Positions 8,095 to 12,484 of a DNA stretch of 17,801 nt are shown here, one piece after another (position 1 is the first letter of the stretch; each line of letters opens with the position of its first letter). The stretch is from Eggerthellaceae bacterium. Lineage in GTDB: Bacteria > Actinomycetota > Coriobacteriia > Coriobacteriales > Eggerthellaceae. Position numbers and translations under genes: made by a program. The notes beneath the pieces were generated by a model. It saw only the letters and a program-made list of their open reading frames with translations, did not search any database and was not told the DNA's origin. The stretch lies in NCBI GenBank assembly GCA_017533165.1, contig JAFXIM010000120.1, positions 1 to 17,801 of the forward strand. Reading direction: 5' to 3'.

Positions 8095-9594
8095 CTACAG
8101 CAGAGGCTGGTCGTAGCGATAGAGCGCCTCGTTGATAGCCATGACGTCGTAAATCTCGTTCACGATGAAGTACTCGACTATGACGTCGGCTTTACTCGAA
8201 TGCGAAAGGGCAAAACCCGCGCGCTCGAGCAGCCCTTGAGTTTCATCAAGGGAGAGCTCGAGGGCAACTGCTAAGGCGAGCACCGTTTTCTTGGCAGGAC
8301 GATACTCGTGCGAGCTTCTGATCTTCGAAAAGAGCTGCCTGCTCATGCCGGCGCGTTTGTATACCTCAACGTCGCTCATGCCGCGAGCGTCAATGAGCTC
8401 CATGAGCAACACCGAGAAGGGCGCATCGAGAGCGTCGAGGGCGTCAAGCAAACTGGTTTGGCCCACAGCCTCAAGGGGCACAGGCGCACAGGAAGCCTGC
8501 TCGCAGGGTGCGGGCGCGCACGGGGCCGAGGGCACAAGCTGGGCCAAATCAGGTGCCGGCGCAGCCCCGAAGGCGGGGCTTGAAGCGGAAACGCCCGGCG
8601 GCATGGCTCCATCAGCTTCCCGGAGGGCAGCGGTCGGGAACCAGTCGGGCATAAGCCTTCGACGGCGAGTTGGGGATTTGCCGCGCTTACCTTCCCCATC
8701 CGCATCGGCCGAAGCAACTGGATGCGCAGCTAATTGTCCTTGCGGGAAGGGCTCGTAGATTCGCGCGAGGTAGTCCTCCAACTCATACAAGGGCATGGGA
8801 TTGGGAATGAGGCGAGCATGCTCGTCAAAACGCACACCAAGGTTTGCGGGAATGATCTCACCCACATAGCGCGCCGCCGAGGGTCTGATCAGGCCCTTCT
8901 TACAGGCAATCATGGTCACCGTGGCATCGGCCTGCACGCAAGGATGAGCACATTGGCCCGTCTGCGCGTCAAGGCCGCTCGGAACGTCGGCCGACACCAC
9001 GAGCACGCCGCGATGGCGAGCTCGATCAAGCAGCTTCATCCACGTAGCAAAGGGCTCCCTGACCTCAGTGCCCGAAAAGCCCACGCCGAGCATGGCATCA
9101 ATGACGAGATCTACGTCGACAAGAGCTTTACGCACGCTCTCGGCATCGGGATTGACCAGAACGGGAAAGGCGCCCGACACGCGCAGGGCCTCGCTGCGAG
9201 CGGGCTCGGAACGCAAGTCCTCGGGGGCACAGGGGCTTACGAGCGTCACCTGACAACCAGCCGCAGCCAACGTGTCAGCCGCCGTCCAGCCATCACCGCC
9301 ATTGTTGCCCGCACCCGCTAAAACGAGCACGCGGGGCAAATCGAAGGGAAACCCCGACCCGCACGACCTCCGTATAGCACAGCGGCTAAGCGAGCAGGCA
9401 CCGCATACGCCCGAAAGCTCGAGCGGCGCAAAGCCAGCCCTCCCCTCCTCGCGCACGTCGGCGAACAGGGCTATAGCAGCATCAGCCAAAGCCGAGCCAG
9501 CTCGACGCATGAGACCGTCAAGCTTTCCCCCGCTTTGCGCGATACGTCGCTCGATGTTTATGACGTCTTCGACATTGAGAACCCGTCTGCGCAT
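8095..9594 (-). CDS. NAD(P)HX epimerase domain fused to a C-terminal HTH-like module
   Basis: The first 279 residues are a YjeF_N/NnrE domain, which interconverts the R and S forms of hydrated NAD(P)H for repair by a dehydratase. Motifs are GAGNNGGDG (94-102), VIDAMLGVGFSG and ADVPSGLD. A cysteine-rich insert (Cys64, 67, 72, 78) precedes the GAGNNGGDG loop. An Ala/Pro-rich linker (280-392) leads to a 107-residue helical module (393-499) with the phrases VEVYKRAGMSRQLFSKIR, KKTVLALAVALEL and DQPLL. From memory this resembles the XRE-like tail of many macrodomain proteins. The usual NnrD dehydratase partner domain is absent. I prefer the ATG at 9594: AAGGGA sits 5 nt upstream and the family begins here. 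ATGs at 9600 and 9648 (AGGAG 10 nt upstream) are alternatives. The linker stays in frame with no sign of a frameshift. Confidence 0.85.
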   Translation of the reverse strand: MRRRVLNVEDVINIERRIAQSGGKLDGLMRRAGSALADAAIALFADVREEGRAGFAPLELSGVCGACSLSRCAIRRSCGSGFPFDLPRVLVLAGAGNNGGDGWTAADTLAAAGCQVTLVSPCAPEDLRSEPARSEALRVSGAFPVLVNPDAESVRKALVDVDLVIDAMLGVGFSGTEVREPFATWMKLLDRARHRGVLVVSADVPSGLDAQTGQCAHPCVQADATVTMIACKKGLIRPSAARYVGEIIPANLGVRFDEHARLIPNPMPLYELEDYLARIYEPFPQGQLAAHPVASADADGEGKRGKSPTRRRRLMPDWFPTAALREADGAMPPGVSASSPAFGAAPAPDLAQLVPSAPCAPAPCEQASCAPVPLEAVGQTSLLDALDALDAPFSVLLMELIDARGMSDVEVYKRAGMSRQLFSKIRSSHEYRPAKKTVLALAVALELSLDETQGLLERAGFALSHSSKADVIVEYFIVNEIYDVMAINEALYRYDQPLL

Positions 9595-9683
9595 TCCCAT
9601 CCCTTCATCGTTGGTCCGTTCGCTCGACCCAAGCCCTTCGACCGGCATCGCCTGTTTGCTCCTGCGAGCAAGCGCTTTGTGAA

Positions 9684-9745: not shown

Positions 9746-10492
9746 GTGGAAAACGAGATCAACACCACGGCCAATGAGGCCAGCGCAGACAAGGTGGCCG
9801 AGGCGCTGTCGCTGCTCGCGCGTGAGCGCGGCAAAATCGAAAAGCGCATCGATGCGTACGAGGCGGGCGAATTCGGGGCAACCCACGAATCGCTTAACCC
9901 CATAGGCGTACAGGTTGCCTGCGAGACCCTGTCCGACCATATGTCTCCTGAAGTCGCCGAAGCGCTCAGACGAGAGTCGGAAGCCCTCGATGCGGTCAAC
10001 GCCCGCTATGATGCGCTCGAAGACTCCATTGACGCCGTTATCGCAAGGCTCACCGAGCAGCGCGCCGACCTGGTCAAGGATCATGCGGAAAAGCGCAAGG
10101 CCGCCAATGCCGGCAACATGACCAAGGGCTTCTGGCCCGTATACGGCGGATTGTTCCTGTGCATAGTTGCCGTGTTCGCCACGCGAGGGCTGGGGTTTGG
10201 CATGCCGGGCGCCATCGTCGCCGGCGTTTTGGGCTATGCGGCTGGCTCCTATATCTTCAAGTACCTAGCTAACCGCTTCATAAAGACCGACACGGCCGCC
10301 ATCGAGAAGGCAGCCGAAGAGCTCGAGGCCATTCGCGACGAATACGATCGCGTCGCAGACGAGGTGAACGAGAAGAAAGATCAACTTGACCTTGTTGAGC
10401 GAGCTGAAGAGGCCATCGACGAACTGCAGATGTTCATCCAGGACGCCCTCGATGACTTCGACGAGGACGACTTTGACGAGGAAGAAGACTAG
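9746..10492 (+). CDS. Membrane protein with coiled coils and acidic tail, unknown function
   Basis: I do not recognise a named family. The 248-residue protein has a helical, charged N-terminal half with heptad-like spacing (about 14-120), two adjacent hydrophobic helices (about 129-146 and 152-172, the second Gly-rich), a second charged helical stretch (about 182-233), and a tail in which nearly every residue after 236 is Asp, Glu or Phe. This predicts a hairpin in the membrane with both coiled coils on the same side, probably cytoplasmic. It starts with GTG at 9746, with AGAGG 5 nt upstream; no ATG start fits better. It is the only plus-strand gene here, divergent from the epimerase-HTH gene, and ends at a strong terminator. 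It might be an envelope-stress or scaffold protein; that is a guess. Confidence 0.85.
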   Translation: MENEINTTANEASADKVAEALSLLARERGKIEKRIDAYEAGEFGATHESLNPIGVQVACETLSDHMSPEVAEALRRESEALDAVNARYDALEDSIDAVIARLTEQRADLVKDHAEKRKAANAGNMTKGFWPVYGGLFLCIVAVFATRGLGFGMPGAIVAGVLGYAAGSYIFKYLANRFIKTDTAAIEKAAEELEAIRDEYDRVADEVNEKKDQLDLVERAEEAIDELQMFIQDALDDFDEDDFDEEED

Positions 10493-10523
10493 CGAAAGCC
10501 AAGCCATCGAAACCCAAGCAACC

Positions 10524-10573
10524 CCGCCGCCCGAGTGAGCTGACTGGCTCCACTCGTGCGGCGGAGCTTTTTT
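10524..10573 (+). terminator. Strong terminator of the membrane protein gene
   Basis: CCGCCGC (10524-10530) pairs with GCGGCGG (10558-10564); CGAGTG/CACTCG and AGC/GCT extend the stem past one C-T mismatch. It is followed by AGC and six T residues. It starts 31 nt past the stop codon. Confidence 0.92.
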
Positions 10574-10589
10574 CGCCGTAATGCCCGCC

Positions 10590-10615
10590 GGCCAAAAGAT
10601 GCATCCATGTCGACA
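10590..10615 (+). repeat. Repeat unit 1 (outer, plus orientation)
   Basis: It begins GGCCAAAAGATG and ends TGTCGACA. It is a near-identical inverted copy of unit 4. Confidence 0.85.
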
Positions 10616-10641
10616 AGTTAACGAGAAATCGGGCCTTTTCT

Positions 10642-10667
10642 GGCCAAAAGCACCGTTGATGTCGACA
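10642..10667 (+). repeat. Repeat unit 2 (inner, plus orientation)
   Basis: It begins GGCCAAAAGCAC and ends GATGTCGACA. Its middle is the most divergent part. Confidence 0.8.
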
Positions 10668-10703
10668 GAAACGCCCGTCAAAAGAGAACGGAACCCGTAA
10701 AAG

Positions 10704-10729
10704 TGTCGACATCGAGGCACATCTTGGCC
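10704..10729 (-). repeat. Repeat unit 3 (inner, minus orientation)
   Basis: Read on the minus strand, it begins GGCCAAGATG and ends GATGTCGACA. It shares the GATGTCGACA end with unit 2. Confidence 0.8.
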
Positions 10730-10755
10730 AAATAGGACTGTTTTGGTTGATTATT

Positions 10756-10781
10756 TGTCGACATGGACGCATGTTTTGGCC
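10756..10781 (-). repeat. Repeat unit 4 (outer, minus orientation)
   Basis: Read on the minus strand, it begins GGCCAAAACATG and ends CCATGTCGACA, matching unit 1 at 24 of 26 bases. Confidence 0.85.
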
Positions 10782-10879
10782 AAAGATCCCTAGGTACGGG
10801 GGTGCGGCTCGTAAAAGACAATGACGCCGAAGCAAGGGGAGCCATCAGCCGCCCAAACAAGCAGATGCCTTGGAATAGC

Positions 10880-10920
10880 GAAGCCCGTATGCGAACTCAA
10901 TTCGTTCGCATACGGGCTTC
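10880..10920. repeat. 17-bp perfect hairpin without T-run
   Basis: GAAGCCCGTATGCGAAC (10880-10896) is exactly complementary to 10904-10920 around a 7-nt loop. Neither strand has a T-run afterwards. It lies 71 nt beyond the cysS stop and may act as a 3'-end stabiliser or a U-less terminator between the convergent genes. Confidence 0.7.
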
Positions 10921-10946
10921 AGTGCAAGTAAACCTCGTTGTCGGCA

Positions 10947-10983
10947 CATTGACGGCCACGTAATCCAAGCGCCGCCGTCAATG
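10947..10983 (-). terminator. Hairpin just after cysS
   Basis: CATTGACGGC (10947-10956) pairs perfectly with GCCGTCAATG (10974-10983) over a 17-nt loop. It begins 7 nt past the cysS stop on the minus strand. There is no T-run, so termination is uncertain; it may work together with the hairpin at 10880-10920. Confidence 0.4.
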
Positions 10984-10990
10984 CGGCAGC

Positions 10991-12484
10991 TTACGCGCCA
11001 TAGGTAACGCGAGCACCCTGCGGGGTGTCCTCGATCACAAAGCCAAGGTTCTTCAGGCCATCGCGAACACCATCCGCCACAGCCCAGTTCTTCTCCTTGC
11101 GGGCGGCAGCGCGTGCATCCAACAAAGCCTGGACGGCCTCAGCCGGATCGGTGCCGGCAAATCCGGCGATCTCGGCGGCAAGGGATACAACCTCGATCGG
11201 GTAAGCTTCGCCAGCCTCCTCAACAAGGGCGATGCCCAAAACATCCATAAGCTCGACGATGCATTCGCGCGCTGCGGAAACGGCCTCGACATCGGCAGGC
11301 GACAGGCTCTTGTCAGCCACGGCGGCATTGACCTCACCCACCAAGGAGAAGATCTCACCGAGTGCCGCAGGAGCATTGAAGTCATCATCCATGGCGTCCG
11401 TGAAGCCCTCGCGCGCAGCAGCGACGCGGGCAACAAGGGCAGCGCTGTCAACCGCAGCTCCACCTTCGGCTGCCGTCTCAACAAGCCAATCGAGGTTCTT
11501 TACCGCGTTCTCGATACGCGTAAGCGCCGAGTCTGCCTCAGCCAAACGATCCTCGGAGAAATCAAGCGGGGAACGGTAATGCGTCTGCAGCATGAGCATA
11601 CGCAGAGCGGCCGGACGCGTGGTCTCAAGCACCTCGAACAGCAGCATGAAATTGCCGAGCGACTTGCTCATCTTCTCCTGGTTGATCTGAAGCATCCCAG
11701 AGTGCATCCAATGATTGGCGAAGGTGCAGCCGTACGCGGCCTCGGACTGGGCGCGCTCGTTTTCGTGATGCGGAAACACCAGGTCAGAGCCACCGCCGTG
11801 AATGTCAAAGGGCAGACCTAGGTATTTGTGGGACATAGCCGAGCACTCGATATGCCAACCCGGACGACCCTCACCCCAGGGGGACGGCCAAGAAGGCTCG
11901 CCGGGCTTTGCAGCCTTCCAGAGAGCGAAGTCGAGCGGGTCGCGCTTGCGGTCTTCGAGGCCCTGGCCGTCAGCGCGAAGCTCGCGGTGACCGCCTTCCA
12001 TCTCGTCGATGTTGCGGCCGGAAAGCTGGCCGTAGCCCTCATAGGAACGGACGGCAAAGTACACATCGCCCTCAACGGCGTACGCGTGCCCACCTGCAAT
12101 GAGCTCCTCGATGAGCTCAATCATGGTTCCGATCTCCTCAGTGGCCTTCGGGCGCACGTCCGGATCCTTCACACCTGCCTCATGCATGTCGGCAATGAAG
12201 CGCTCGGTGTACTCGGAAGCAACCTCGGCGGCGGTGCGGCCCTCTTCGTTGGCGCGCTTGATAATCTTGTCGTCAACGTCAGTCACGTTCTGAACGAAGG
12301 TGACGTCATAGCCGCGCCACATGAGGTAGCGGCGAATGGTATCGAAGCTAATGAAGGTACGAGCATTGCCGATGTGGATACGGTTGTAAACCGTAGGGCC
12401 GCACACGTACATGCTGACCTTGCCCTCGCGCAGGGGCACGAGCTCCACCTTGCGACGTTCTTTAGTGTCGTAAAGCTTGATCAT
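10991..12484 (-). CDS. cysS: Cysteinyl-tRNA synthetase
   Basis: This class I aminoacyl-tRNA synthetase charges tRNA-Cys in the cytoplasm. The HIGH motif appears as HIGN (37-40) in [17 protein letters not shown], and KMSKS is at 271-275. The zinc site that selects cysteine is complete: Cys28, Cys214, His239 and Glu243, offset by 5 from E. coli after the first ligand. The C-terminal helical region ([16 protein letters not shown] and beyond) recognises the tRNA; the total of 497 residues is a little longer than E. coli (461). The ATG at 12484 has AGGAG 8 nt upstream. It lies 67 nt downstream of cysE on the same strand, so cysteine synthesis and charging are probably co-transcribed. A small GCCC/GGGC hairpin followed by TTT lies in that gap (12505-12517) and could attenuate read-through. 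Confidence 0.97.

What the first reader, a model, noticed from the sequence alone, without database searches (positions are those of the whole stretch)
10590..10781. Four-unit mirror repeat island with exact 52-bp register
Four 26-bp units (GGCC, 14 bp, TGTCGACA) lie as two direct copies then two inverted copies, spaced 52 bp within each pair and facing each other over 36 bp. Both ends of the unit are palindromic. Ends and spacing are kept while the spacers drift, which suggests selection on protein-binding sites or on a folded RNA. The outer pair (24/26 identical) and inner pair (19/26) could form a long stepped hairpin. I do not recognise it as a described REP, BIME or MITE family; 52 bp is close to five helical turns, so the units of each pair would face the same side of the DNA.
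Basis: partly seen in the sequence, partly recalled or inferred. Interest (0 to 1): 0.72.

Follow-up and report, generated by a model that had tools for sequence, protein, structure and literature searches.

The report
Helix-phased DNA repeat clusters between genes
The four-copy repeat is one member of a scattered family of non-coding elements in Eggerthella-type gut bacteria, whose sites mostly lie a whole number of DNA helix turns apart, so they probably bind a protein that bends or wraps the DNA.

Summary
In detail: four exact GGCC-N14-TGTCGACA units, two direct then two inverted, 52 bp apart within each pair, 36 bp between pairs. The exact motif is at chance level in relatives (138 genomes of one family, probably Eggerthellaceae); the window's own genome is not held. 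Loosening the search showed a dispersed intergenic family. The outer half of the unit (CTGGCCA plus an A/T run) is shared between genera; the inner "tag" differs between them. GGCC centres mostly lie whole helical turns apart: direct pairs 52 bp in three lineages (32, 42, 74 in another), facing pairs mostly 126, 136/137, 147/148 or 157; window 52, 84, 52. Exceptions exist, chiefly 144 bp in two lineages. Most measured elements also carry a central GACCTGG core, phase-locked to both ends, but the window copy does not. In seven compared copy pairs, spacer letters drift while length stays within 1 bp. Target duplications, RAYT linkage and Rfam matches were not found. Best reading: a double-stranded DNA platform for a bending or wrapping protein near gene 3' ends, working like E. 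coli BIME-1/RIB without being a REP. The protein is unknown.

The parts
10590..10615 (+). Unit U1: GGCC, A-run, lineage tag TGTCGACA
10642..10667 (+). Unit U2, 52 bp after U1; with its 5' flank (CTTTTCTGGCCAAAAGCACC) it carries the unit end shared with related genera
10668..10703 (.). 36-bp spacer between the facing pairs; no GACCWGG core here
10704..10729 (-). Unit U3, inverted; GGCC centre 84 bp (8.0 turns) from U2 and 136 bp from U1
10756..10781 (-). Unit U4, inverted, 52 bp from U3; 24/26 identical to U1
10524..10573 (+). GC-rich hairpin (stem 10524-10537 / 10551-10564) followed by a T-run 10568-10573, read as the intrinsic terminator of the upstream gene; lies between gene and element
9746..10492 (+). 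248-aa ORF whose 3' end lies 98 bp before the element
10991..12484 (-). cysS (cysteinyl-tRNA synthetase), convergent, stop 210 bp after the element

Best explanation
The island is one copy of a dispersed family of intergenic double-stranded DNA elements. Each unit has a GGCC palindrome with an A/T run on its inner side (shared across genera) and, roughly 16-22 bp further in, a tag that differs between genera. Units, and in most measured copies a central GACCTGG core, are mostly placed a whole number of B-DNA turns apart, so the GGCC sites face the same side. The most likely mechanism is a protein (nucleoid-type, or gyrase) that binds units and core on one face and bends, loops or wraps the 11-21 turns between the outermost units, near gene 3' ends, much as IHF does at E. 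coli BIME-1/RIB elements. Shown: the family, the turn-locked spacing, length conservation in seven copy pairs, the genomic position of the copies that could be classified. Inferred: that a protein binds, that DNA is bent or wrapped, and the role in local chromosome topology.
For: Shared unit end with dispersed inverted pairs in G696/G698. All 19 GGTTTACGC words in 381 kb of G696 sit in such units (contigs chosen mostly because they had hits). Facing-pair distances of 22 elements: 126 x7, 136 x6, 137 x3, 144 x1, 147 x4, 148 x1; R at 10.5 bp 0.92, 0 of 20000 uniform simulations as high. 33 non-window sequence clusters: R 0.873, best period 10.4, 0 of 5000 (clusters not fully independent). One value per lineage and class, with the main exceptions: R 0.80, 0 of 20000; without G696/8, R 0.73, 19 of 20000. 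Core to downstream GGCC 64.5 or 75.5 in 29 of 37, upstream 61.5, 71.5 or 81.5 in 29 of 40. Direct pairs of similar units: 52 bp in 8 of 16, in three lineages. In seven copy pairs between related genomes the facing distance agrees to within 1 bp although spacers are 55-99% identical. 0 of 17 classifiable copies between divergent genes; a gene 3' end 20-165 bp away in 15 of 17.
Against: Off-phase cases: G642/G643 and G556 at 144 bp (13.7 turns), G644 at 40, 43, 124 and 219, L214 at 61. The window, G713 and G642 elements lack the core. Most copies come from one genus pair (G696/G698), so founder effects contribute. Arms within an element are slightly more alike than shuffled ones (111 of 20000 shuffles), which a hairpin would also give. 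No binding protein was identified. Gene calls were crude: a first, laxer version had 10 of 14 elements overlapping a called ORF, which I took for spurious and filtered; in the second, 13 of 32 copies could not be classified and 2 overlapped an ORF.
Confidence: 0.68

Rival explanations
1. Miniature mobile element (MITE or REPIN-like): the units are terminal inverted repeats, and turn-locked length reflects synapsis of two ends on a very short DNA during transposition.
For: Inverted ends, multi-copy dispersal, similar copies close together (two each on G696 C9, C264 and C295). Helical dependence of very short IS50 transposons is recalled from memory, not looked up.
Against: No target-site duplication of 4-9 bp above shuffled pairs at offsets 4-39 in 39 elements. 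Y1/RAYT transposase found in only 4 of 9 carrier genomes tested (drafts, may be incomplete) and without units within about 1.5 kb at four carrier loci. Similar copies in related genomes keep length with diverged spacers. Arrays with extra direct units and a separately phase-locked core are not typical transposon ends.
Confidence: 0.15
2. DNA gyrase loading sites: gyrase wraps the element with its cleavage centre at the core and its wrapped arms ending at the GGCC sites.
For: The E. coli gyrase motif is about 130 bp, symmetric, arms to -63 and +66, with 10.75-bp periodicity, and gyrase cleavage sites are overrepresented in BIME-2 (PMC6379681 passages). The commonest core geometry here is 61.5 or 71.5 bp upstream and 64.5 bp downstream. 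Copies lie near gene 3' ends, where positive supercoiling builds up (general knowledge).
Against: Gyrase needs no lineage-specific tag. Elements of 14-15 turns and the window's 18-turn array exceed 130 bp, and the window lacks the core. No cleavage data. The match is to one published motif and by geometry only.
Confidence: 0.2
3. Long RNA hairpin: a terminator, processing signal or regulatory RNA made from the inverted arms.
For: The window folds at -91 kcal/mol, z -8.7. Some arm changes are paired (L217/L218). Within-element arms are slightly more alike than shuffled.
Against: Spacing follows the B-DNA helical repeat including direct units and the core, which RNA pairing does not explain. In 9 of 28 elements the A/T runs of the two arms mismatch at two or more of four bases. 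The variable NN positions show no within-element match above shuffled. No Rfam match at gathering level to an element. A terminator-like hairpin already precedes the element.
Confidence: 0.07
4. Chance duplication relic: an inverted tandem duplication with no function.
For: Two direct plus two inverted copies can arise by template switching (general knowledge).
Against: Similar architecture and the same 52-bp register in other genera with different tags; spacer length kept against letter drift.
Confidence: 0.03

Closest known systems
E. coli BIME-1 / RIB elements (two inverted REPs around an IHF site)
   Same: Two oppositely oriented units around a core, intergenic, at 3' ends of transcription units (BIME-1 and IHF from passages of PMC2817692; RIB position only from a reference title shown there).
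   Different: Single units here are not clearly hairpins. Core is GACCTGG, usually followed by an A/T run. Spacing comes in several classes one helical turn apart and the tag is lineage-specific. Different phylum. The window copy lacks the core.
REPIN (REP doublets moved by RAYT)
   Same: Inverted pairs, extragenic, preferred spacings (71 and 110 bp in P. fluorescens, passages of PMC3116915).
   Different: REPIN spacing is fixed per type, here it steps by about one turn. Y1/RAYT not found in 5 of 9 carriers. The word 'helical' does not occur in the main text of that paper.
DNA gyrase wrapping motif / BIME-2
   Same: About 12 turns, near-symmetric about a centre, 10.5-10.75 bp phasing.
   Different: Here specific sequence tags and discrete sites; longer versions exist; no cleavage evidence.
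GTAG- and CGTC-tagged REPs (PMC3733652)
   Same: Mainly between unidirectional and convergent genes near 3' ends, often dimers (passages).
   Different: No such tagged unit hairpin recognised here (by eye); Eggerthella, Slackia and Cryptobacterium have 0 occurrences in its main text.

Membership tests
REP sequence | 20-40 bp unit that is itself an imperfect palindrome (hairpin) | tested here: not met
   Eight typed units (4 window, 2 G696/8, 1 G740, 1 G644) folded as DNA: none clearly more stable than shuffles; best is the G740 unit, z -1.8, 14 of 200 shuffles as stable
REP sequence | dispersed, intergenic, multi-copy | tested here: met
   in relatives only; the window's own genome is not held
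REPIN/RAYT | REP-associated Y1 transposase in the genome, flanked by the repeat | tested here: not met
   PF01797 in 4 of 9 carrier genomes searched; no units around it at L311, L312, L313, L315; the six G644 loci were not inspected for units
BIME-1/RIB | two inverted units around a conserved core | tested here: inconclusive
   core GACC[TA]GG in 19 of 22 elements of relatives; not in the window copy
BIME-1/RIB | core binds IHF | not testable with these tools
   no binding data
MITE | target-site duplication | tested here: not met
   39 elements, k 4-9, offsets 4-39; best k=4 count 3, reached by 74 of 300 shuffles
Gyrase strong site | about 130 bp with 10.5-10.75 bp phased arms around a cleavage centre | tested here: inconclusive
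   geometry fits the 126-bp class; cleavage not testable
Known RNA family | Rfam match | tested here: not met
   window and 16 loci: at gathering level only a tRNA and a tmRNA; a lax search of 10480-11000 gave seven hits, all below their gathering scores

The most novel reading that the evidence does not exclude
A genome-encoded set of bacterial DNA-wrapping or looping sites: a protein of Eggerthellaceae-type bacteria reads GGCC/A-run ends, a central core and a lineage-specific tag, and holds 11-21 helical turns in a fixed wrapped or looped complex near gene 3' ends. The tag evolves between genera while the helical geometry is kept.
Probability: 0.35. Interest if true: 0.88.

Novelty: new variant of a known kind. 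Interest (0 to 1): 0.7.

Why it matters
Dispersed palindromic repeats in bacteria are usually described by sequence and mobility. Here the conserved quantity is the helical register: copies in several genera mostly keep whole turns, with one turn added on either side of a core, while the letters drift. That is a strong sequence-level sign of a specific wrapped or looped nucleoprotein complex in a gut lineage where, to my knowledge, chromosome architecture is little studied, and it can be tested at once by half-turn insertions. It also gives a ready assay for the unknown protein: tagged DNA from a carrier genome as bait.

Tried and rejected
Exact motif as family signature: chance level in 399 genomes of the class of G002 (148 with a match), 36 of the class of G001 (5), 138 of the family of G494 (50). 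Paired TGTCGACA with 30-60 bp between: 5 of 296 genomes of the class of G494, none with the window's design by eye. Two-unit patterns and TGGCCAAAA-N10-TGTCGACA in viral contigs: 0 each. Element against plasmids and phages: only short weak hits, best E 0.6. Best single hit of the element in the 138 genomes was not a unit but G731 (E 7.3e-4, over the window's spacer); no unit lies in its 3 kb locus, so I set it aside. Synteny through the 248-aa gene: no relative in genome contigs, two distant ones in 138 genomes, eight proteins without a name in the large database. A 1.8-kb stretch between outward unit ends in G582 was looked at for a transposase: only ORFs of its first 1.5 kb (L194) were listed, no obvious transposase by eye, no family search run. 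The GGCC-to-core pattern matched in 58 of 138 genomes, but many hits look like coding sequence, so I do not use that as a count of carriers. Beyond PF01797 no search for the tag-binding protein was made.

Literature: ten full-text searches. No paper in the listings describes such repeats in Eggerthella or Coriobacteria, as far as titles and abstract starts show; several listings were capped (10 of 23, 10 of 44, 8 of 1,198, 8 of 25, 8 of 100), and only the open-licence PMC library was searched. Papers PMC6379681, PMC3116915, PMC2817692, PMC3733652 and PMC12306157 were seen as passages only. The IS50 length result is recalled.

Statistics caveats: one search used 22 of the 23 elements listed (G643 left out as the orthologue of G642; it is also 144 bp). 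In one search the reversed control pattern matched in one genome. One search used loci L081 upward, not L001-L080; its clusters are not fully independent (L217 and L218, similar copies in related genomes, fell into two clusters). Its low-identity control had only two pairs and says nothing; the control (11 pairs, R 0.73) is small and may contain true units. In one search weaker or overlapping matches also gave 17, 35 and 61. One search's table was typed by hand; it leaves out 115 in G696/8, 168, 178 and 210 in G740, 219 and 220 in G644, and 61 in L214. The seven pairs were picked by me as similar copies, so they are not a blind sample. The distributions cited were printed before that script failed; one search repeats the test.

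Full report
What is in the window. GGCC centres are 52, 84 and 52 bp apart. The element lies 98 bp after the stop of a 248-aa ORF and 210 bp before the stop of convergent cysS, behind a hairpin plus T-run that I take for the upstream gene's terminator. It folds well as RNA (z -8.7) and as DNA (z -6.1), as a long inverted repeat would.

Where the window comes from. No genome is held for it. I therefore take the family of G494 (138 genomes held) to be Eggerthellaceae; this is an inference.

The exact motif does not recur. In 138 family genomes 50 had at least one GGCC-N14-TGTCGACA, 0-3 each and none paired in the listing, much as in an unrelated class (148 of 399).

The wider family. A relaxed DNA comparison of the element with the 138 genomes gave only weak hits. 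The best (G731, over the spacer) has no unit near it. But in G696 and G698 several hits fell on the same 18-20 bases around the start of U2, some as inverted pairs 120-150 bp apart. Reading those places showed a dispersed intergenic repeat: TTTCTGGCCAAAAnCnCCnnGGTTTACGC and its inverted copy. In 381 kb of G696, from contigs mostly chosen because they had hits, all 19 GGTTTACGC words lie in such units. TTTTGGCCAGAAA occurs in 13 of 138 genomes, 23 times in G696 and 7 in G698, against a single match of the reversed control pattern. The outer half of the unit is shared across genera. The inner tag differs: TGTCGACA (window), GGTTTACGC and TGACGAC (both in G696/G698), GAATTCCGC (G695), GGTGACG (G740), TTGTCAGAGC (G713), CGAGTGAGC (G642/3), AGCTGTA (G644) (read by eye).

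Turn-locked spacing. In G696/G698 the distances between tag centres were mainly 28, 52, 91, 101/102, 112/113 and 122/123 (weaker or overlapping matches also gave 17, 35 and 61). In GGCC centres these are 63, 52, 126, 136/137, 147/148 and 157/158, i.e. 6, 5, 12, 13, 14 and 15 turns of 10.5 bp. A search that accepted any facing distance from 118 to 148 bp found 23 elements in 6 of 138 genomes, with the reversed control in one. In the 22 that I measured the distances were 126 (7), 136 (6), 137 (3), 144 (1), 147 (4), 148 (1); none of 20000 uniform draws was as periodic. Over all loci from L081 on, 53 of 58 distinct facing pairs had similar arms and fell into 34 clusters, one being the window; the 33 others gave R 0.873, best period 10.4 bp. 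With one value per lineage and class, main exceptions kept, R is 0.80 (0 of 20000); without G696/G698 it is 0.73 (19 of 20000). The window's 52 and 84 bp are 4.95 and 8.00 turns, and its U1-U3 and U2-U4 distances are both 136.

The 52-bp register. Among 16 distinct same-strand pairs of similar units, 8 are spaced by 52 bp: the window, five in G696/G698 loci (L186, L191, L222, L228, L229) and two in G644 (L197, L210). Six in G740 have 32, 42 or 74 bp, again whole turns. Two are off phase (61, 124).

The core. 19 of 22 elements hold GACC[TA]GG between the ends. Over the fetched loci its distance to the upstream GGCC is 61.5, 71.5 or 81.5 bp in 29 of 40 cases and to the downstream GGCC 64.5 or 75.5 bp in 29 of 37 (test repeated, 0 of 5000 simulations on either side). 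A turn is added on either side independently, and G740, with another tag, uses the same values. The core is usually followed by an A/T run. The window copy, G713 and G642 lack the core. In the window the second pair of units may take its place; that is a guess.

Length is kept while letters change. In seven copy pairs that I picked between related genomes (six G696/G698, one G642/G643) facing distance was equal in six and differed by 1 bp in one. Spacers were 59/82, 65/92, 63/80, 93/103, 61/111, 99/100 and 92/112 identical, with 0, 1, 4, 0, 4, 0 and 0 gapped positions. The 100 bp outside the elements needed 6-24 gapped positions per side in five pairs and 0-2 in the other two. Some pairs may be paralogues.

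Place in the genome. A first crude gene caller had 10 of 14 G696 elements overlapping a called ORF; most of these ORFs had low third-position GC and I tightened the filter. The second gave, for 32 copies, 11 tandem, 6 convergent, 0 divergent, 2 overlapping a called ORF and 13 unclassified; gaps of at least 150 bp in the long contigs were 54 tandem, 11 convergent, 16 divergent. In 15 of the 17 classified copies a gene 3' end lies 20-165 bp away. The window copy fits (98 bp).

What it is not. Not clearly a REP: none of eight single units folds significantly better than shuffles. Not shown to be RAYT-moved: PF01797 is found in 4 of 9 carriers tested and not beside units at four loci inspected. 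No target duplication in 39 elements. No Rfam family. An RNA-only role does not explain a B-DNA period that includes direct units and the core; arms within an element are only weakly more alike than shuffled arms (8.14 against 7.28 of 12 positions, 111 of 20000 shuffles; variable NN positions not at all), and 9 of 28 elements mismatch in the A/T run.

Mechanism. The simplest account is protein binding to double-stranded DNA on one face, with bending, looping or wrapping of 11-21 turns. E. coli BIME-1 (two inverted REPs around an IHF site; passages) is the nearest working analogue, and the gyrase motif (130 bp, arms to -63 and +66, 10.75-bp period; passages) is a striking geometric match to the 126-bp class. 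Which protein binds is open.

Against this reading: G642/G643 and G556 at 144 bp are off phase, as are several G644 distances and L214; most copies come from one genus pair; no binding data exist.

Noticed in passing
window 10880-10920: Perfect 17-bp inverted repeat with a 7-nt loop downstream of cysS, without a T-run; possibly a cysS 3'-end structure.
   Followed up: no
window 8095-9648 (-): YjeF_N domain protein with a C-terminal HTH_3 match below its cut-off; an unusual fusion if real.
   Followed up: no
window 9746-10492 (+): 248-aa protein, SLATT_1 match below cut-off, only eight relatives (62-94% identical), none with a name, in the large protein database.
   Followed up: partly
G696/G698, e.g. 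L235, L305, L252: A second tag subfamily (TGACGAC) in the same genomes shares the GGCC end and the GACCTGGG core; facing distances 146 and 156 bp in these loci.
   Followed up: partly
L230 1-273 and 457-611: An element lies about 180 bp downstream of a tmRNA match.
   Followed up: no
G644 (L309, L314, L316-L319): Six Y1 transposase matches with only two distinct scores, open frames of 181-200 aa; probably copies of an IS200-type insertion sequence.
   Followed up: no
L165/L167 (G670): Tandem repeats of about 21 bp beginning TGTCGACA, possibly coding; found while searching paired TGTCGACA.
   Followed up: no
L168 about 1499-1530 (G731): A stretch resembling the window's spacer, best blast hit of the element, with no unit near it.
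   Followed up: partly
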